Assembly: GCA_022600535.1 (NCBI GenBank)
Contig: JAHZKE010000087.1
Location: 1-40,366, forward strand
Length of the DNA: 40,366 nt
Source of the DNA: Pseudomonadota bacterium
Lineage (GTDB): Bacteria; Pseudomonadota; Gammaproteobacteria; Tethybacterales; Persebacteraceae
Direction of reading: 5' to 3'
Notes under the pieces: generated by a model
Databases searched by the model: none
Told to the model about the DNA's origin: nothing
What the model saw: the letters and a program-made list of their open reading frames with translations, nothing else
Made by a program: the position numbers and the translations under genes
Shown: positions 19,223-31,868 of the stretch, piece after piece
Layout: each line of letters opens with the position of its first letter
How positions within the stretch are numbered: the stretch's first letter is position 1

Positions 19223-19240
19223 CGCTCGTAGATTTAAAAG
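19223..19240 (+). repeat. Dispersed 19-bp repeat, copy 1 (left edge of defence island)
   Basis: CGCTCGTAGATTTAAAAG, found again with one or two changes at 27709-27727 (same strand) and 31771-31789 (opposite strand). This copy lies 20 bp after soxD. Confidence 0.55.
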
Positions 19241-22816: not shown

Positions 22817-25800
22817 ATGAATGCACAACAAAGAAATGAGTTAATTAAAACGCGCAATTTTTATAAATTATTTATTGAGCAAGGGTTTGATAATCCGCCA
22901 TCAAGAAATAATAATATTCTCTTACCGCGTGCTGACAGTAGCAAAGTAACGGCGGAATTAATCTGTCAAAAACGCGGTTTTGTGATTTGCACCTGTGAAA
23001 TTAATAACAATGCAGAAATTAGCAAAGCAGAAATAAATAAATTATTACGTGAGTTGAGTAAAAGTCATTATGAAAATATATTAATAATATATGGCAAAGA
23101 TAGCAATGGGCATGAAGAACAGCAATGGATAGTTTCTATCCGCCCGCAAAACCGCCCATTATTGACGGTGAGTGTTCCGTGGCATGAAAATAAAAGTAAT
23201 CAACTATTAGAAGAAAAATTACAAGGATTAATTTTTCCCTTAGAAGGCGAAGAAGAGTTAACAATTAGTGATGTTGTGCAACGGGTACGTAGCGCTTTTG
23301 TTGCTAATAGTGAAAAAATAACAAAGAAATTTTATGAGAAATTTAAACAACAGTTAAATATATTTGAGGAGTTTATTGAAGGGATAGAAAACTTAATAGA
23401 TAAGAAGCAATATGCTGCCCTCATGTTAAACCGTTTAATGTTTGTTTATTTTATTCAGAAAAAAGGATTTTTAGATGGAAATATTAATTATCTGCAAGAG
23501 CGCCTTGAACAAGTAAAAAAGCAATATGGCAATAATCAATTCCATGATAAATTTTATCGTGAGTTTTTACGGCGATTGTTTAAGGAAGGATTAGACACTC
23601 CGGTTGAGCAACGCGACTCAACAATTAGTAAACTATTGGGGAAAGTGCCTTATCTAAACGGAGGTTTGTTTGATGCGCATAGATTAGAAACCGATAATTT
23701 AAAAATTAATCTTTCCGACAAAGCATTTGAAAATATATTTAATTTTTTTGGTCAATACCAATGGCATCTAGATAGCCGCCCAACAGCAAAGGGTAATGAA
23801 ATTAACCCCGATGTATTAGGGTATATATTTGAAAAATATATTAACGATAGGGCGCAAATGGGGGCGTATTATACGCAAGAAGATATTACCGAATACATTG
23901 CCAAAAATACCATATTGCCGTATTTGTTACAACAAGCAGAGAAAGAGTGCCGGAATGCCTTTACTGCTGATAGTAGCATTTGGCGCTTTTTACAAGAGAA
24001 TCCTGATAATTATATTTATGATGCCGTTAAACATGGGTGCAATTTATCGGATGACAAAATTCCCGAAAATATCCGCCAAGGGTTAGATAGTACAAAAGCG
24101 GATTTATTAGCACGGCGGCGGGATTGGAACACCACCGCCACAGAAAAATTTGCGCTACCGAAAGAAACATGGCGCGAAGTGATTGCCCGCCGTCAACATT
24201 ATTGCAAAGTAAAAGAAAAAATTAGCAATGGCGAAATAGAACGGGTAGAAGATTTAATTACCTATAATTTAGATATTGTTCGTTTTGTAGCAGATGCCTT
24301 AAAAAATTATGAAGGTAGTGATTTTACAGATGTAGTTTTTCGTACGATTGCGGGGGTACGTGATAAATGGGTAACTGGCACAAATTCTAAAGTTAGGCGC
24401 GGTATCAGTATATTAGACCCTTCATGTGGTAGCGGGGCATTTTTATTTGCAGCATTGAATATTTTACAACCACTCTATAAAATTTGCATTGAAAGGATGG
24501 AAGAATTTGTTGCTACTGATGACCATCGTCTGCAGCAAAAAGACGGAGCAAAAAGGTACCCATTATTTCGTCAAGTATTAAAAGAAGTTGAAGAACACCC
24601 CAACCAAGAATATTGGATATATAAGACGATTATATTGGAAAATTTATATGGGGTAGATCTTATGGCGGAGGCAGTAGAGATTGCTAAATTACGCTTATTT
24701 TTACAGTTAGCGGCGGTGGCAGAGTATGACGAAAATGCAGTTAATCTCGGATTAGAACCCCTGCCAGACATTGATTATAATATTCGTGCGGGTAATTCAT
24801 TGGTTGGTTTTGCCAACATGACAGAATTTGAAGATACACTCAAAGGTAAGTTAAATTTTGCCCCAAAGCTAAAAGAAAAAATAGGACAGCAAGCATATAC
24901 TGTTAGTATAAAAAATATCGCTTTCAGACAAGCGCAAGATGATTATCAAAATATTAATTACAGCGAAGTAAAACAAGAGTTAACTGATGAACTGAAAAAA
25001 TTGAATGATGAATTGAATAATTATTTAGCATCAGCTGCTTATAATATTGATTCTAATAAATCATCAAATAAGTATCAAGATTGGAAAAAAGATACTCAAC
25101 CTTTTCATTGGTTAGCAGAGTTTTATGGTATTATTGAAGAAAAGGGTGGCTTTGATGTAGTGATTGGCAATCCACCGTATGTGGCTAAAAGAAAGCTAAA
25201 CTATAAATTATTTGGTTATTTAAATAATAATCCGGCAGATATATATGCTACTTTTATAGAAAAAACAGCATACCTATTAAATGGTATCGGTAAAACTGGC
25301 ATGATAATTCCTCTTAGTTTGGGGTTTAGTAATTCTTTTAGTTCGTATAGAGAATTAATAATTCGACATTATAGTTATAACTGGTATTCTTCGTATGGAA
25401 GAATACCCGCAGGATTATTTAATGCCGATGTGCGAATACGCAATACAATACATATCGGAAGTAAAATTTTAAATACAAAAACGCACTGTTTGTATACTAC
25501 TAAATTAAATCGTTGGTATTCAGAACAACGAAATTCATTATTTAGCACTTTACAGTACGCTAATTACGCTTCATCTGTATGGGGTAATAAAGTGCCGAAA
25601 TCAAATTCGGATAAACTGTTGAATGCTTTTGAAAATTGTTTGCAAAAAAATGGAACGATTGGAGATCTTTTGGGAGATGCACGCAATACTGTTTACCCAC
25701 TTTTCTATAAACAAAGTGCTTATAACTGGTTAACTTGTGCTATTGAAATGCCGCCATGTTATATTGGTAAGAATATCGTATCAAATTCTAAGTTAGGGCA

Positions 25801-26191
25801 ATTAAATTTTACTATCCAAGATAATCGTAATATTGCTATGTTATTGTTGAATGGAAGATTAATGTTTATATTTTGGGTTATATTAGGTGATGATTTTGAT
25901 GTAACTAAAAATAATTTAACAGAATTTCCTATTTCATTAAATAAAATTTCTCCCCCAAAAAAAGTAAAGTTACTTTCACTATATAAAGAATTATCTGAAT
26001 TTTTACCTCAAACTATTCAATATAAATTAAATGCAGGAAAAAAAATAGGAACTTATAATTTGGCTAAATGTCGTCATATTACTGATAAGAGCGATGTTTT
26101 ATTTGCAGAGATTTTAGGAATAACAGACGTATGGGAAGAGATAGAACTATATTATTCACAAACAATAAAATCTATTGATAGCTATGAATAA
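22817..26191 (+). CDS. Eco57I-type N6-adenine DNA methyltransferase (class I, large)
   Basis: An 1124-residue protein. AdoMet motif I is DPSCGSGAFLFAAL starting at D534, followed by GVDLMAEAVEIAKLRLFLQLA. The catalytic motif is N785-P-P-Y788 in VIGNPPYVAKRK. The N-terminal ~500 residues hold an unassigned region plus helical segments (AALMLNRLMFVYFIQKKGFL and MGAYYTQEDITEYIA) typical of Eco57I/PglX-like methylases. The C-terminal ~330 residues are probably the target recognition domain. It should mark host DNA at an asymmetric site on one strand while the upstream PLD-helicase acts on unmarked DNA (inference). No clear PD-(D/E)xK nuclease motif is seen at the N-terminus. Base composition is clearly AT-richer than the flanking core genes. 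Confidence 0.88.
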   Translation: MNAQQRNELIKTRNFYKLFIEQGFDNPPSRNNNILLPRADSSKVTAELICQKRGFVICTCEINNNAEISKAEINKLLRELSKSHYENILIIYGKDSNGHEEQQWIVSIRPQNRPLLTVSVPWHENKSNQLLEEKLQGLIFPLEGEEELTISDVVQRVRSAFVANSEKITKKFYEKFKQQLNIFEEFIEGIENLIDKKQYAALMLNRLMFVYFIQKKGFLDGNINYLQERLEQVKKQYGNNQFHDKFYREFLRRLFKEGLDTPVEQRDSTISKLLGKVPYLNGGLFDAHRLETDNLKINLSDKAFENIFNFFGQYQWHLDSRPTAKGNEINPDVLGYIFEKYINDRAQMGAYYTQEDITEYIAKNTILPYLLQQAEKECRNAFTADSSIWRFLQENPDNYIYDAVKHGCNLSDDKIPENIRQGLDSTKADLLARRRDWNTTATEKFALPKETWREVIARRQHYCKVKEKISNGEIERVEDLITYNLDIVRFVADALKNYEGSDFTDVVFRTIAGVRDKWVTGTNSKVRRGISILDPSCGSGAFLFAALNILQPLYKICIERMEEFVATDDHRLQQKDGAKRYPLFRQVLKEVEEHPNQEYWIYKTIILENLYGVDLMAEAVEIAKLRLFLQLAAVAEYDENAVNLGLEPLPDIDYNIRAGNSLVGFANMTEFEDTLKGKLNFAPKLKEKIGQQAYTVSIKNIAFRQAQDDYQNINYSEVKQELTDELKKLNDELNNYLASAAYNIDSNKSSNKYQDWKKDTQPFHWLAEFYGIIEEKGGFDVVIGNPPYVAKRKLNYKLFGYLNNNPADIYATFIEKTAYLLNGIGKTGMIIPLSLGFSNSFSSYRELIIRHYSYNWYSSYGRIPAGLFNADVRIRNTIHIGSKILNTKTHCLYTTKLNRWYSEQRNSLFSTLQYANYASSVWGNKVPKSNSDKLLNAFENCLQKNGTIGDLLGDARNTVYPLFYKQSAYNWLTCAIEMPPCYIGKNIVSNSKLGQLNFTIQDNRNIAMLLLNGRLMFIFWVILGDDFDVTKNNLTEFPISLNKISPPKKVKLLSLYKELSEFLPQTIQYKLNAGKKIGTYNLAKCRHITDKSDVLFAEILGITDVWEEIELYYSQTIKSIDSYE

Positions 26192-27086
26192 AAACGATTC
26201 TTTTTCTGTCCGTATGGGCTTTGAACCAAAACAAGAAATGCAAATTAATGATTTAAACGAACCAGCAAGAACAGCACTCTTTAATGTACTGGATAGATGT
26301 ATTATGAAAAATGATACTGATATGTGGCAAGTTATCGGAGAAAATTTTTTTCACATACGATATAATAAAATAATAGAGTACACTCCAGAAGGATATAGAA
26401 ATCAGATGGATATAGATTGTGATGTCGTAGATGAGCGAACGCAAGAAATTATAGGTATGTACGATGAAATTTACATAAGGTGGTATCGTATTTTTGATTT
26501 TACCGAATTTGTGTATGTGATAATGAAAGAAAAAATTAACGAGGCATCTCGTAATGAAAAGAGGCGACTTCAGTATAAAAAACTTACAAAGTTAGAAGCA
26601 GACATAAATTCAGTGTTACGAGAACATGTTATTGGTTATACATTTATAAATGGAAAATTTATTCCATTGACAGATGAAGAGCAATTAGCAGAACTTGCCA
26701 AAGCGGCGGCAACACCTTATCAAAATGCGAATGAGCACATTAAGAAAGCAACTCAACTTTTTTCTAATCGCACTAAGCCCGACTATGCCAATAGTATAAA
26801 AGAAAGCATTAGTGCAGTAGAATCAGCGGCAGTAGAATTAACGGGCGAGGAAAATACTACATTAGGACAAGCGATAAAAGCATTAAAAGCTAACGGTATC
26901 AATTTGCATCCTGCTTTTGAAGAAGCATTGAGTAAGCTATACGGTTTTACTAGTGATAGTGCAGGCATTCGCCACGGCGGTACAGGCGAACCATTACAAC
27001 AAGACCAAGCGACTGCCCGCTTTATGCTTATCACCTGTTCGGCATTTGTTAACTACATTATCGCTAACGCACCTACCAAAAAATAA
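26184..27086 (+). CDS. AbiJ-like abortive infection protein (AbiJ-NTD4 plus HEPN-like C-terminus)
   Basis: A 300-residue soluble protein. The N-terminus (FSVRMGFEPKQEMQINDLNEPARTALFNVL) matches the AbiJ N-terminal domain 4 pattern. The C-terminal ~110 residues (YANSIKESISAVESAA..., TLGQAIKAL, LYGFTSDSAGIRHGG, FMLITCSAFVNYI) match the helical AbiJ/HEPN-like module often found in RNase toxins. The conserved SDxxGIRH holds the Arg and His candidates. I use the ATG at 26184, which overlaps the methylase by 8 bp; a TTG at 26175 is also possible. Placement inside a restriction-like operon suggests a back-up suicide response if the first barrier fails (inference). Confidence 0.7.
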   Translation: MNKNDSFSVRMGFEPKQEMQINDLNEPARTALFNVLDRCIMKNDTDMWQVIGENFFHIRYNKIIEYTPEGYRNQMDIDCDVVDERTQEIIGMYDEIYIRWYRIFDFTEFVYVIMKEKINEASRNEKRRLQYKKLTKLEADINSVLREHVIGYTFINGKFIPLTDEEQLAELAKAAATPYQNANEHIKKATQLFSNRTKPDYANSIKESISAVESAAVELTGEENTTLGQAIKALKANGINLHPAFEEALSKLYGFTSDSAGIRHGGTGEPLQQDQATARFMLITCSAFVNYIIANAPTKK

Positions 27087-27088
27087 CC

Positions 27089-27586
27089 ATGCCCGCCATA
27101 CGTGAAATACAAATTATGGGTTGGCAAAAGCCAGTAACAATAACAGGCGATGAGGCGATATTAAAACAGCAAAAAACGGCTTTCTTTTGTTCACAAAAAT
27201 ACCCCGCAAAAGCCGTATTACCGTCTTTTGATTGGGCAGAACAAGCCCGCGATAATGGAATATGCGTAGTGAGTGGTTTTCATTCACTCGTAGAGCAAAA
27301 CATCCGTGATATTTTATTAATGGGAGAACAACCTTTAATCTGGGTAATTGCGCGTAGTAGCTACCAAAATCCGCCCGAATGGGCAAAAAAAGCGTTAGAA
27401 AGCAATCGCTTGTTGATTATTAGCCCCATTAGTGAAAAACAGCAAAGCAATCGCACAACGGATACCCGCAACCGTCTTATTGTAGCAATAGCCGATCATA
27501 TTGTTATCGGCTATGCCGCCCCGGGCGGCAAGATAGAAAGCGCACTACAAACAAGTAATAAGCCGCCGCAACGATTAGCGCAATAA
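27089..27586 (+). CDS. Small DprA-like Rossmann-fold protein, last gene of defence operon
   Basis: A 165-residue protein starting 2 bp after the AbiJ-like gene. The pattern VVSGFHSLVEQNIRDILLMGEQPLIWVIARS, followed by LLIISPISEKQQSNRTTDTRNRLIVAIADHIVIGYAAPGGK, matches the Rossmann core of DprA/Smf-type proteins (GxxS-E, a leucine-rich helix, SP, RN and GGK elements). It is about half the length of DprA and lacks the winged-helix tail and the RecA-loading context. Similar short relatives occur in defence gene clusters; a nucleotide- or ssDNA-sensing role is a guess. Confidence 0.6.
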   Translation: MPAIREIQIMGWQKPVTITGDEAILKQQKTAFFCSQKYPAKAVLPSFDWAEQARDNGICVVSGFHSLVEQNIRDILLMGEQPLIWVIARSSYQNPPEWAKKALESNRLLIISPISEKQQSNRTTDTRNRLIVAIADHIVIGYAAPGGKIESALQTSNKPPQRLAQ

Positions 27587-27732
27587 ATCAATTCCCCGTC
27601 AGCCTAGCGCTGCGCGCCTTCCGATGATGGGAACATCGCCGATGAAGCAAACAAACAACGCCACAACCGCAAAACTTGACAACTGTCAATCCCACCAATA
27701 GCTCCCTACGCTCGTAGAATTAAAAGCAAAAA
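27587..27732. other. Intergenic spacer between the two defence modules
   Basis: No gene is seen. It holds a 14-bp segment GTCAGCCTAGCGCT (27598-27611), almost repeated at 31743-31755. It also has a perfect inverted repeat TTGACA-AC-TGTCAA at 27676-27689 and the second copy of the dispersed 19-bp repeat. Confidence 0.5.
27709..27727 (+). repeat. Dispersed 19-bp repeat, copy 2 (between defence modules)
   Basis: CGCTCGTAGAATTAAAAGC; related copies lie at 19223-19240 and, inverted, at 31771-31789. It directly abuts the tracrRNA terminator. Confidence 0.55.
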
Positions 27733-27822
27733 GCCGACCCGAAGGTCGGCTTTAGTATCGTGTATGGATCATTTAAATGATCACTTGTTAATCCAAGCTT
27801 AAAAAATCCAACTCTTAGTATG
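27726..27822 (-). ncRNA. Candidate tracrRNA of the type II CRISPR-Cas9 locus
   Basis: On the minus strand, ACTAAGAGTTGG (27818-27807) is the exact complement of the 12-base segment CCAACTCTTAGT in the middle repeat of the downstream array. Further on, GCTTGGATTAAC pairs with the GTTGTCC start of the repeats, with one bulged U. The palindromic hairpin GATCATTTAAATGATC and then the strong terminator follow. A TATAAT (27832-27827) lies at the right distance to begin transcription at the anti-repeat. The order anti-repeat, hairpin, terminator is the standard tracrRNA plan, and the predicted RNA is about 95 nt. It is divergent from cas9. It was deduced by eye, with no folding done. Confidence 0.7.
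27729..27753 (-). terminator. Intrinsic terminator of the tracrRNA
   Basis: The 7-bp perfect stem GCCGACC/GGTCGGC has a 4-base loop (TTCG on the minus strand). On the minus strand it is followed by TTTTT and on the plus strand only by TTT, so minus is the better direction. It marks the 3' end of the tracrRNA candidate. Confidence 0.75.
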
Positions 27823-27826
27823 ATAC

Positions 27827-27832
27827 ATTATA
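27827..27832 (-). promoter_or_regulatory. tracrRNA promoter -10 box
   Basis: TATAAT on the minus strand, 5-7 bases before the anti-repeat. A weak TTGCTC lies 19 bases further upstream. On the plus strand TATAAA at 27839-27844 may serve cas9, so the two promoters overlap back to back. Confidence 0.45.
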
Positions 27833-27867: not shown

Positions 27868-30800
27868 ATGAAATACAGGTTAGGGCTTGATATTGGTACA
27901 AATTCAATCGGTTGGAGTGTGTTAGCCACTAATGAGCAACAAGAGGTTGTGGAAATTGTTGATGCAGGAGCGCGTATTTTTTCGGATGGTAGAACTGATA
28001 AATCAAAATCAACACTGGCAGCAAATCGGCGCGTGGCGCGTGGGGCAAGACGTCGGCGCGACCGTTTTTTACAGCGACAGAGTTTTCTTCTGCAATCATT
28101 ATCGGCGGCAGGGTTGTTTCCTAAGGACCAAGAAGAACGTAAAGAATTACAATTAGAAAATCCACTACAACCGCGCACACGCGCGTTAACGGAAAAATTG
28201 CAACCTTTTCAAATCGGACGTGCGCTATTTCATATTAATCAAAGAAGAGGATTTAAAAGCAACCGTAAAGATAAAAGTGAAGAGGCGACAAGCGGTAAAG
28301 TCGTTAATTCGGTTAAATTATTAGCGCAGGAGATGGGGTTGTGCAAGGGAGAAGAACAAGAAGAAAGTAGCAGAGAATGGTTAGAAAAATTACAGAGTCA
28401 AAAACAATTATCATACGGTCAATTTTTGTGGGAGCGCCAACAGCAACATAAACCGACCCGTGCTCGTTCAGGGTATGGTGAAAAAGGCGATTTATATGAG
28501 GTGTATCCAACACGCGAGATATACATAGATGAATTTAATAAAATATGGGACGCACAAGCAACCTTTTATCCTGAAATGATGACGAAAGAATGTCGAAAAA
28601 ATATCTACGATATTATCTTTTTTCAGCGTCCCTTAAAAGCACCTGAATTAGGGCAATGTATATATTTAAGTAAAGAAAAACGTACTTATCGGGCAATGCC
28701 GAGTTTTCAGCAATTTCGTATTTATCAAGAGGTTAATCATTTGGAATGGCGAGATGGAAACCACGATAAATATCAAGTCAGGAATAATAAAAAATTACGT
28801 GACCAGATAGTTTCTATATTAGAAAAACAAGCGCATAAAAAAAGCCCCGCTAAGCCGTCTGTTAGAAATGCTGAAGTTAATTTTCGTGTGATCAAAAAAA
28901 TATTGGCGAAAAATGAAATCGCCGATAGTACGATTGTATTTAACTATGAAAGCGAAAAGCGTAATGGGCTTGATGCTAATTTAACTTCACATATTATGCA
29001 ACACCTTGATTATGTTGGACAACAATGGCATGAGTGGGATTTGCAAAAACAAGATAAATTTATTGAGGAGATTTTAGGGAATGAGAAAGAAGATGAAGAG
29101 GTGCATATTATATTGCAACAGCAATATGGGTTATCGCAGCAAGCTGCTGATACATGTATGCAAGCTCAGTTAATAGAGGGAACAGCAAGTGTATCGCTCA
29201 AGGCAGCGAGATTAGTATTAGAAAAATTACGCGATGGGGTTGTTGATGAGGAGGGGGAAATACGTATCGTAACGCAAGATAAAGCCGTTCAATTTTTGGC
29301 GGACGAAATTGATGAATTTGTTAATCCAATGCAACAAAAAAATGAGGACGGCGAAGAATATAAACTGGCTAAACAATTACCTTATTATGGTGAATTATTT
29401 GAAGATAGGCGGCATATTATCCCCGGGCAACGTAGAGAAATAGATAAAAAGAAAAAGGATGATTTAAATTATTTTGGTGGTGTTACCAATCCGACTGTCC
29501 ACATTGCACTTAATCAAATTCGTAAAGTGGTTAACGAACTCATTGCTCGTTATCAACATCCTGATTCTATTGCTATAGAATTAGGTAGAGATCTACCCGA
29601 AGGGGCGGGGTATCGTGCCTACATAGAAACAAGCCAGAAAAAAAATCAGGATAATAATCGTGAATGGGGCGACAAATTAATAGAATTAGGTGTTGACAAT
29701 AATGCGGCTAATCGTTTGCGGTTAAAACTATGGAACCAACAAAAAAAACTGTGTCCTTATTCTGGAAAAAAGATAGAATGTAGCGAGTTATTTAGTGCAG
29801 AAATAGAAGTGGATCATATTATTCCGTTTAGTATGGCGTTGGATGATAACGCAGCCAATAAAGTAGTGTGTACACGTCAAGCAAATAGAGATAAGGGCAA
29901 TCGCACTCCATGGGAAGCATTTCACGATAACCCTAATTATATATGGCGGGATATTTTGTCACGCGCTGGCGACATTGCAGTTAAAAGTAATCAATATAGC
30001 CGTCATAAGAAAAAATTTGAGGATAAAGAATTTAATAATAAATTATGGCGCTTTCAAGAAAATGTGATAGAAAAGTGGCAAGAGGAATATGGCAATGACT
30101 TTTTGGCACGGCACTTGAACGACACACGTTATATTGGTAGATTAACGCGGGAATATTTAGAGTGTATATGCCATAGCAATAAAATTAACGTGGTCACTGG
30201 TAAAGTAACCTCTTTATTACGTAAACATTGGGGGCTAAATAGTATTTTGCAGACGGCAGACGAGATCACAAAAAATCGCGAAGATTACCGTCACCATGCG
30301 GTGGATGCGATTGTTATTGGCATGATAAATAGAAGTATGCTACAAAAAATATCCACGAAAGTCAATCAAGGTGAGGAATTGCAAATAAATTTTATATTTT
30401 CCAAAAACGAAGATGGTACGAGTGTGATTGATCCGTGGGTTGATTTTCGTACTGATGTTAAAAAAGTGATTAACAATATTTATGTGTCTCATCGCACGAA
30501 TCATAAAAAACAAGGACAGCTACATAAAGAAACAGCATACGGTATAGCCGATCAGCAAAAAAGGCAAAAATTAAATCAAGCAGAACTAGATCAAGCGGTA
30601 TCAACATCTGTTGTTTTTCGTAAAGGTATAGAAGAGTTCACAGAAAGAAAACAGGTAATGGAAATTAGAGATAAATTATTGCAGCAGGAATTTTTACAAT
30701 ATTTTGATGCAGCAGTTGAACAAGGTGGAAAGGGTGTTGACGGTATAAAAGCACTGGCACAAGAAAAAAATATTAGACATTTGCGTGTTCAGGTTAATAG

Positions 30801-31323
30801 AACGGTACAACCCATTAGAAACAAAGAAAAAGAGATATATAAAGCTTACGAGTTGAGAAACAATTGGGCAATGGAAATTTATCAACCACATGACTTGCCT
30901 GATAATTGGTATTGGACCGTTATTTCTAAATATGAAGCGATCCAGAAAAATTTTCAACCCGGAGTCACAAAAAGAAAACAGCCAACAGATAAATTAGTAA
31001 TGCGTATTTTTAATGAGGACATGTTAAAAATTACAGATAAAAATGGAGAAACGCGTGTAATGCGCGTACATAAAATGAGTGAGGGTGATTTGTGTATATG
31101 CGAGCATCAACTGGCAAATATTGCCAAGCGTTTAAAACAATTAGTAGATAATCAATTATGCTATCGTTGCACCAGTGTGGGGGCTTTTAAAAAATTGCAG
31201 CCGCAAAAAATTCACATTAGCCCTACGGGGCGTATTCGTCACGCGAAACAAAAGCACGCACAGCAAGATTGTACGGGCGGCAGCTATTTGCTGCAAAACT
31301 TAAAAGAGATAAGGATTGCCTAG
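27868..31323 (+). CDS. cas9: CRISPR-associated endonuclease Cas9, subtype II-C type, with altered C-terminus
   Basis: An 1151-residue RNA-guided nuclease. RuvC-I is GLDIGTNSIGWSVL with D8; the Arg-rich bridge helix (NRRVARGARRRRDRFLQRQ) follows. RuvC-II is SIAIELGRDL with E571. HNH is IEVDHIIPFS with D649/H650 and the downstream N and K of ANRDKGNRTP. RuvC-III is YRHHAVDAIV with H809, H810 and D813. All catalytic residues are kept. The size, the SKSTLAANRR segment and the C-terminal KIHISPTGRIR resemble II-C enzymes. The start is fixed by AAGGGA before the ATG at 27868. The last ~25 residues, after GRIRHA, come from out-of-frame cas1 DNA and replace the normal end. No csn2, cas4 or cas2 is present. 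Confidence 0.93.
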   Translation: MKYRLGLDIGTNSIGWSVLATNEQQEVVEIVDAGARIFSDGRTDKSKSTLAANRRVARGARRRRDRFLQRQSFLLQSLSAAGLFPKDQEERKELQLENPLQPRTRALTEKLQPFQIGRALFHINQRRGFKSNRKDKSEEATSGKVVNSVKLLAQEMGLCKGEEQEESSREWLEKLQSQKQLSYGQFLWERQQQHKPTRARSGYGEKGDLYEVYPTREIYIDEFNKIWDAQATFYPEMMTKECRKNIYDIIFFQRPLKAPELGQCIYLSKEKRTYRAMPSFQQFRIYQEVNHLEWRDGNHDKYQVRNNKKLRDQIVSILEKQAHKKSPAKPSVRNAEVNFRVIKKILAKNEIADSTIVFNYESEKRNGLDANLTSHIMQHLDYVGQQWHEWDLQKQDKFIEEILGNEKEDEEVHIILQQQYGLSQQAADTCMQAQLIEGTASVSLKAARLVLEKLRDGVVDEEGEIRIVTQDKAVQFLADEIDEFVNPMQQKNEDGEEYKLAKQLPYYGELFEDRRHIIPGQRREIDKKKKDDLNYFGGVTNPTVHIALNQIRKVVNELIARYQHPDSIAIELGRDLPEGAGYRAYIETSQKKNQDNNREWGDKLIELGVDNNAANRLRLKLWNQQKKLCPYSGKKIECSELFSAEIEVDHIIPFSMALDDNAANKVVCTRQANRDKGNRTPWEAFHDNPNYIWRDILSRAGDIAVKSNQYSRHKKKFEDKEFNNKLWRFQENVIEKWQEEYGNDFLARHLNDTRYIGRLTREYLECICHSNKINVVTGKVTSLLRKHWGLNSILQTADEITKNREDYRHHAVDAIVIGMINRSMLQKISTKVNQGEELQINFIFSKNEDGTSVIDPWVDFRTDVKKVINNIYVSHRTNHKKQGQLHKETAYGIADQQKRQKLNQAELDQAVSTSVVFRKGIEEFTERKQVMEIRDKLLQQEFLQYFDAAVEQGGKGVDGIKALAQEKNIRHLRVQVNRTVQPIRNKEKEIYKAYELRNNWAMEIYQPHDLPDNWYWTVISKYEAIQKNFQPGVTKRKQPTDKLVMRIFNEDMLKITDKNGETRVMRVHKMSEGDLCICEHQLANIAKRLKQLVDNQLCYRCTSVGAFKKLQPQKIHISPTGRIRHAKQKHAQQDCTGGSYLLQNLKEIRIA

Positions 31324-31491
31324 GAATTAATGCGGCATTAAATTATGCGTACACTATTCTACGCGCATGTTTAGCAAGAGCCGTAGTGGCGGCGGGGTTG
31401 CATCCCAGTTTTAGCTTGCACCATAAAAAAAACGCAAAATACTTTTAATTTAGTGGATGAATTGATGGAACCGTTTAGACCAATCTCCGAT
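31245..31491 (+). pseudogene. cas1: Remnant of cas1 (C-terminal half fragment, frameshifted)
   Basis: In the frame +2 relative to cas9, the DNA reads ETKARTARLYGRQLF, then KRDKDCLGINAALNYAY and TILRACLARAVVAAGLHPSF, ending SLHHKKNAKYF before a stop. One base further on, the frame resumes as FNLVDELMEPFRPISD. These are the conserved central and C-terminal Cas1 motifs (RRD...GINALLNYGY, LHP, HHKN, DLMEPFRP). The first ~150 residues and everything after FRPISD are gone, and there is a +1 frameshift near 31444. The first ~79 bases overlap the cas9 3' end, so a deletion joined cas9 to the middle of cas1. It cannot make an integrase. Confidence 0.85.
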
Positions 31492-31556
31492 TGTTTGGGG
31501 TGGCACAAAGCGAAAATATTTTAATAATTCTTCCTTGAAAAATCAGGAAAAATTAT
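31492..31556. other. Short gap between cas1 remnant and array
   Basis: No gene or cas2 trace is seen. A weak imperfect hairpin (TTCCT...AGGAA) lies around 31530-31550. Confidence 0.4.
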
Positions 31557-31716
31557 GACCATTACAACACTAAGAACGGGGGGGAATAGTTCGTAAAGCG
31601 CGTAAAATGTGGCCCGCTTGTTTATAACACTAAGAGTTGGGGGCTGGGACAACGGTTTTGTCCGACGCGCTTATTACTGTTTGTATTATAACACTAATAA
31701 TGGGGAATTGGACAAC
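31557..31716 (-). CRISPR. Short degenerate type II CRISPR array (three repeats, two spacers)
   Basis: Read on the minus strand, three diverged copies of a ~36-nt repeat occur at 31716-31681, 31653-31618 and 31592-31557. The shared pattern is GTTGTCC, a C-run, then TTAGTGTTATAA, with a C-run of variable length. The unit spacing is about 63 and 61 bases, leaving putative spacers of 27 nt (31654-31680) and 25 nt (31593-31617). The third copy has lost GTTGTCC. The middle copy shares CCAACTCTTAGT with the tracrRNA anti-repeat. The first copy ends TGTTATAAT, an extended -10. Repeat boundaries are approximate because the copies differ. Confidence 0.6.
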
Positions 31717-31868
31717 TGCCGCGCCTTATCAAAACCCACCACGTCAGCTAGCGCTACCACTACTTCATCAGCTTTCAATTCTACGAGCGGATTGAGCGGT
31801 TAACCCAAATAGCATTTGCATAATGCAAAAAAACAATAGAATAACCCGTTAACCTTGCTTGAAACTGC
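31717..31868. other. Leader-side region of the array, no intact gene
   Basis: Upstream of the array on the minus strand. It has the GTCAGCTAGCGCT segment (31743-31755) also found at 27598, and the inverted third copy of the 19-bp repeat. The minus strand is open as NPLVELKADEVVVALADVVGFD, which could be a worn piece of coding DNA, but no start or family is seen. A perfect inverted repeat TTTGCAT-A-ATGCAAA lies at 31815-31829. Confidence 0.4.
31771..31789 (-). repeat. Dispersed 19-bp repeat, copy 3 (right edge of defence island)
   Basis: On the minus strand CGCTCGTAGAATTGAAAGC, one base different from copy 2. It is inverted relative to copies 1 and 2. Confidence 0.55.

What the first reader, a model, noticed from the sequence alone, without database searches (positions are those of the whole stretch)
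31200..31495. Deletion junction makes the Cas9 tail out of frame-shifted cas1 DNA
The last ~79 bases of cas9 also read, in another frame, as Cas1 (ARLYGRQLF, KRDKDCL), and the Cas1 homology continues past the cas9 stop as GINAALNYAYTILRAC and DELMEPFRP. So one deletion removed the natural end of cas9 together with the first half of cas1. Cas9 now ends in about 25 residues that never evolved as Cas9, right after the KIHISPTGRIR part of its PAM-interacting domain. The locus has lost adaptation but keeps an intact nuclease.
Basis: partly seen in the sequence, partly recalled or inferred. Interest (0 to 1): 0.8.

Follow-up and report, generated by a model that had tools for sequence, protein, structure and literature searches.

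The report
Cas9 ending in shifted cas1 DNA
In this bacterium a deletion joined the end of the Cas9 gene to the middle of the neighbouring cas1 gene, so Cas9 carries about 23 extra meaningless residues and the locus can no longer record new viruses: an ordinary kind of CRISPR decay that leaves the cutting enzyme, its helper RNA and perhaps one usable guide in place.

Summary
cas9 (27868-31323) is a type II Cas9 with all tested catalytic residues. Its last ~23 codons overlap, in the -1 frame, a Cas1 fragment that continues past the stop to ~31506. Cas1 homology begins at ~31248. Cas9 homology ends at residue 1123-1130 of 1151 in nearly all relatives that reach the C-terminus. The closest relative with a cas9-cas1-cas2-array locus (G046, about 50% identical Cas9) stops seven residues after a conserved Gly; the window keeps about seven before the cas1-derived tail. 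So Cas9 lost little more than its stop codon, and AlphaFold shows the fold ending there with a low-confidence tail.

Additions: the retained cas1 covers only profile positions 149-234 of 299 and has a frameshift; its 3' end and cas2 are gone too. The array is three repeats, of which one still pairs well with a tracrRNA predicted on the minus strand upstream of cas9. That leaves probably one usable guide, with no matched target. Orphan II-C Cas9s without cas1/cas2 are known in Campylobacter. This is ordinary decay, well documented here; interest is modest. The same genome also encodes a Cas12c with its own Cas1.

The parts
27868..31323 (+). cas9, 1151 aa; residues 1 to ~1128 are Cas9-derived
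   Evidence: TIGR01865 598 bits; RuvC_III and HNH_4 over Pfam cut-offs; D8, E571, H650, N673, H810, D813 conserved
31252..31323 (+). cas1-derived read-through tail of Cas9 (about residues 1129-1151) and its stop codon
   Evidence: homologues end before it; pLDDT below 50 at 1128-1147; -1 frame reads Cas1
31236..31252 (+). interval that holds the cas9/cas1 junction (inferred from where the two homologies end)
   Evidence: Cas9 homology to residue ~1128-1129 in G046, Cas1 profile from 31248
31248..31506 (+). cas1 remnant, Cas1 profile positions 149-234 of 299, with one frameshift in the A-run 31425-31432
27730..27827 (-). predicted tracrRNA: anti-repeat about 27827-27787, intrinsic terminator 27753-27730; -10-like TATAAT at 27832-27827
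   Evidence: terminator found; duplex with repeat -28.5 vs shuffled -11.9 (sd 2.7) kcal/mol; same place and strand as the predicted G046 tracrRNA
31684..31716 (-). degenerate CRISPR repeat (crRNA-upstream); ends in TGTTATAAT, an extended -10-like element
   Evidence: (-17.9 vs shuffled -11.1, sd 2.7)
31654..31683 (-). spacer, 30 nt; the only one followed by a repeat that pairs well with the tracrRNA
   Evidence: no target found
31620..31653 (-). best-preserved CRISPR repeat, 34 nt; only copy in the genome at up to 3 mismatches over its 24-nt core
31594..31619 (-). second spacer, 26 nt, followed by a decayed repeat
31559..31593 (-). decayed terminal repeat
   Evidence: pairing with tracrRNA no better than shuffled, -13.6 vs -12.3 (sd 2.7)

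Best explanation
A II-C-like cas9-cas1-cas2 locus has lost its adaptation genes by at least two deletions. The first joined the end of cas9, at or next to its stop codon, to about the middle of cas1 in another frame, so translation reads ~23 codons of cas1 DNA before a chance stop. The second removed the cas1 3' part and cas2 up to the array. (Shown: the anatomy. Inferred: the order and number of events, by comparison with G046.) Cas9 keeps its whole fold and catalytic residues; the tail is probably disordered and neutral (inferred). With the tracrRNA and one repeat that still pairs with it, Cas9 could still be loaded with one guide (spacer 31654-31683), transcribed from the extended -10 in the repeat before it, as in other II-C arrays (inferred). 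The locus is then a fixed, non-learning effector on its way to loss.
For: Cas1 homology inside and beyond the cas9 ORF. The G046 relative shows the expected order: Cas9 ends ...HISPAGRVSYEKR*, then cas1, cas2 and a six-repeat array. Homologues end 3-17 residues after the conserved Gly, the window 30. AlphaFold drops below 50 at 1128-1147 while the block 1111-1120 is at 90. No other type II cas1 and no cas2 found in the genome. tracrRNA and repeat pairing, terminator.
Against: No close relative with the intact locus, so breakpoints and number of events are inferred from a ~50% identical Cas9 locus that itself carries a cas9 frameshift and a cas1 stop. One MAG contig, no reads. Expression and activity untested. 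No promoter passed the consensus scan near the tracrRNA, and none on the minus strand over the array.
Confidence: 0.85

Rival explanations
1. The junction is an assembly or binning error in a draft genome.
For: The genome is a 116-contig draft, and no reads or second genome of the species were available.
Against: The two sides are neighbouring genes of one operon, in the right order and orientation (compare G046). The cas1 remnant also carries an independent frameshift, cas2 is missing from the genome and the repeats are degenerate, all pointing to decay. The contig continues through intact genes and three tRNAs.
Confidence: 0.06
2. The whole module is dead and Cas9 is merely not broken yet.
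For: cas1 and cas2 lost, two of three repeats degenerate, no target for either spacer, and the nearest relative's locus is also breaking.
Against: 1151 codons without a stop; departures from conserved columns 5 of 75, within the range of the other Cas9s; a tracrRNA terminator and one well-pairing repeat remain. These do not exclude a recent loss of function.
Confidence: 0.45
3. Cas9 is kept for a job that needs no new spacers, such as a fixed guide against one element or regulation of an own gene.
For: cas9, tracrRNA and one guide unit survive while the adaptation genes are gone. Cas9-only loci persist in Campylobacter (PMC8743540, PMC4607530).
Against: No self-match for either spacer at up to 3 mismatches and no phage or plasmid target found.
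Confidence: 0.2

Closest known systems
Orphan type II-C cas9 loci of Campylobacter coli and CampyICE1 (PMC4607530, PMC8743540)
   Same: A Cas9 without cas1 and cas2, with short arrays and a tracrRNA
   Different: Here a cas1 fragment is still present and forms the Cas9 tail; no mobile element or plasmid-targeting spacers found
EH CRISPR-Cas9, II-C locus from a metagenome (PMC10281378)
   Same: tracrRNA upstream of cas9 and antisense to it, array after the cas genes and read towards them
   Different: EH has complete cas1 and cas2
   Same: 47-56% identical Cas9, same order, similar predicted tracrRNA position and terminator
   Different: cas1 full length apart from one stop codon, cas2 and a six-repeat array present; its cas9 is frameshifted
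Nme1Cas9 and related II-C Cas9 structures
   Same: Best structure matches of the model
   Different: About 18-20% identity over the structural alignment; no tail

Membership tests
Cas9 (type II effector) | Cas9 profile over its curated cut-off | tested here: met
   TIGR01865 598 bits against a cut-off of 100
Cas9 (type II effector) | RuvC and HNH catalytic residues | tested here: met
   D8, E571, H650, N673, H810, D813 shared by all homologues that reach these columns
Cas9 (type II effector) | RNA-guided DNA cleavage | not testable with these tools
   needs biochemistry
Type II-C CRISPR-Cas locus | cas9 with complete cas1 and cas2 | tested here: not met
   cas1 is a fragment, no cas2 in the genome
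Type II-C CRISPR-Cas locus | no csn2 or cas4 beside cas9 | tested here: inconclusive
   the ORFs next to cas9 scanned (22817-27586) gave neither, but other genes of the original locus may be lost
Type II-C CRISPR-Cas locus | tracrRNA with anti-repeat matching the array | tested here: met
   duplex -28.5 against shuffled -11.9, sd 2.7; terminator
Type II-C CRISPR-Cas locus | regular array | tested here: not met
   three repeats, two degenerate, spacing 60 and 64
Orphan II-C Cas9 (Campylobacter type) | cas9 kept without functional cas1 and cas2 | tested here: met

The most novel reading that the evidence does not exclude
A minimal fixed Cas9 unit kept in use after loss of adaptation: one tracrRNA, one guide driven by a promoter inside the preceding repeat, and a Cas9 whose cas1-derived tail has become a working part.
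Probability: 0.07. Interest if true: 0.55.

Novelty: new member of a known kind. Interest (0 to 1): 0.27.

Why it matters
It is a clear snapshot of how a Cas9 locus loses its memory-making genes while the effector stays whole, and a reminder that odd C-terminal tails on predicted Cas9 proteins can be read-through debris. If the unit were still active, it would be a natural one-guide Cas9. The Cas12c system in the same genome may interest specialists more.

Tried and rejected
Spacer targets: an exact 20-nt match in 'phage' record MT835522 was dropped, since the region reads as a bacterial glycine dehydrogenase gene (from memory, by its translation) and only 24 of 30 bases match; the second hit, MT835503, shares no longer similarity with it and also reads like a bacterial gene. 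Two viral contigs match 17-nt parts only, 20 of 30 and 18 of 26 bases overall. Plasmids gave nothing. No self-target. A 40-nt direct repeat beside cas12c was rejected as an array: it resembles a dispersed repeat seen elsewhere. Natural overlap of cas9 and cas1 was rejected because the cas1 first half is absent. A dN/dS test was not run: no close relative.

Full report
Observation. The window is contig C110 of a 1.6 Mb, 116-contig draft genome, 95.8% complete. cas9 runs from 27868 to 31323, 1151 aa, TIGR01865 598 bits. A Cas1 fragment in the -1 frame begins inside it. TIGR03639 matches at 1.8e-15 over profile positions 154-208. A Cas1 profile made from 24 Cas1 proteins of the fetched loci aligns from codon 31248, profile position 149, to the end of that frame, 80 bits. 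The 29 codons inside cas9 score 7.7 bits alone, against at most 3.2 for 445 out-of-frame cas9 windows and 3.3 for 1000 shuffles. Beyond the A-run 31425-31432 the homology goes on in another frame to about 31506 (positions 209-234).

Where Cas9 ends. In alignments with 28 other sequences (A1) the homologues that reach this point stop 3 to 17 residues after the Gly at residue 1121; the window has 30. BLAST similarity of nearly all full-length relatives stops at 1123-1130. G046, the closest (47-56% identity by piece), ends HISPAGRVSYEKR*, seven residues after the Gly. The window keeps RIRHAKQ, also seven, before the cas1-derived part. AlphaFold2 on A1 (mean pLDDT 76.9, pTM 0.55) gives a mean of 90 for residues 1111-1120, a last strand at 1123-1125, and below 50 from 1128 to 1147. 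So the deletion cost Cas9 at most a few residues and its stop codon, and added about 23.

The rest of the locus. G046 has cas9, 30 nt, cas1, cas2 and six repeats. By its spacing the first deletion took about 470 nt and the second gap, from the end of the cas1 remnant to the first repeat, about 600 nt; the window has about 50 nt there (window sequence). No cas2 was found anywhere in the genome, with the search ringing in 10 of 14 controls. The only other Cas1 sits beside a Cas12c.

RNA parts. Between the upstream gene and cas9, on the minus strand, lies an anti-repeat followed by an intrinsic terminator; G046 has a like element in the same place. Duplex energies with the three repeats are -28.5 (middle), -17.9 (right) and -13.6 kcal/mol (left), against shuffled means of -11.9, -11.1 and -12.3 with sd about 2.7. 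Only the middle repeat is clearly functional, so one spacer (31654-31683) is followed by a working repeat. The right repeat, upstream of that spacer on the transcribed strand, ends in TGTTATAAT, an extended -10-like element. Promoters inside repeats are known in II-C arrays (mentioned in PMC10281378), but the consensus scan did not list it, so this is inference.

Function. Catalytic residues are intact, the predicted fold is that of II-C Cas9s, and the repeat core occurs once in the genome. Loss of adaptation for this system is well supported; whether Cas9 still acts is not shown. No target for either spacer was found. I think a fixed effector in decay is most likely. The rival confidences overlap with the best explanation, because 'deletion plus decay' can be right whether or not Cas9 is still active.

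Known things. Cas9-only II-C loci are described in C. coli and on CampyICE1 (PMC4607530; PMC8743540). The authors of the latter consider that Cas9 might borrow Cas1 and Cas2 from another locus, and in Flavobacterium a VI-B array does use II-C Cas1 (PMC8092290). Here the other Cas1 belongs to a type V-C neighbour and no Cas2 was found, so borrowing is not supported. I found no report of a Cas9 tail made from cas1 DNA in four paper searches, which were few and limited to open papers.

Noticed in passing
L052:6335-11527 (G000 contig C19, same genome): A Cas12c (type V-C) gene, 1345 aa, NCBIfam NF033950 477 bits against a cut-off of 250, convergent with a Cas1 gene near the contig end; no array on the contig.
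   Followed up: partly
27709-27726 (+), 31772-31789 (-), 19223-19240 (+): A dispersed 18-nt motif CGCTCGTAGAATTRAAAG, 14 copies in the genome at up to 2 mismatches (control 0), sits in inverted copies just outside the tracrRNA terminator and just outside the array, and once about 300 nt upstream of cas12c. Unexplained.
   Followed up: partly
22817-27586: Defence genes upstream of cas9: a type IIG restriction-methylase (PADLOC 774 bits), a PDC-S32/AbiJ_NTD4 protein and a DprA-like/PsyrA-like protein.
   Followed up: partly
L050:4504-8837 (-): In the relative G046 the cas9 is split by a frameshift and cas1 has an in-frame TAG, although its six-repeat array is regular.
   Followed up: partly
L055 (MT835522.1 36008-37227): A record filed as phage that reads here as a bacterial housekeeping gene (glycine dehydrogenase-like, by eye), so probably mislabelled.
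   Followed up: partly
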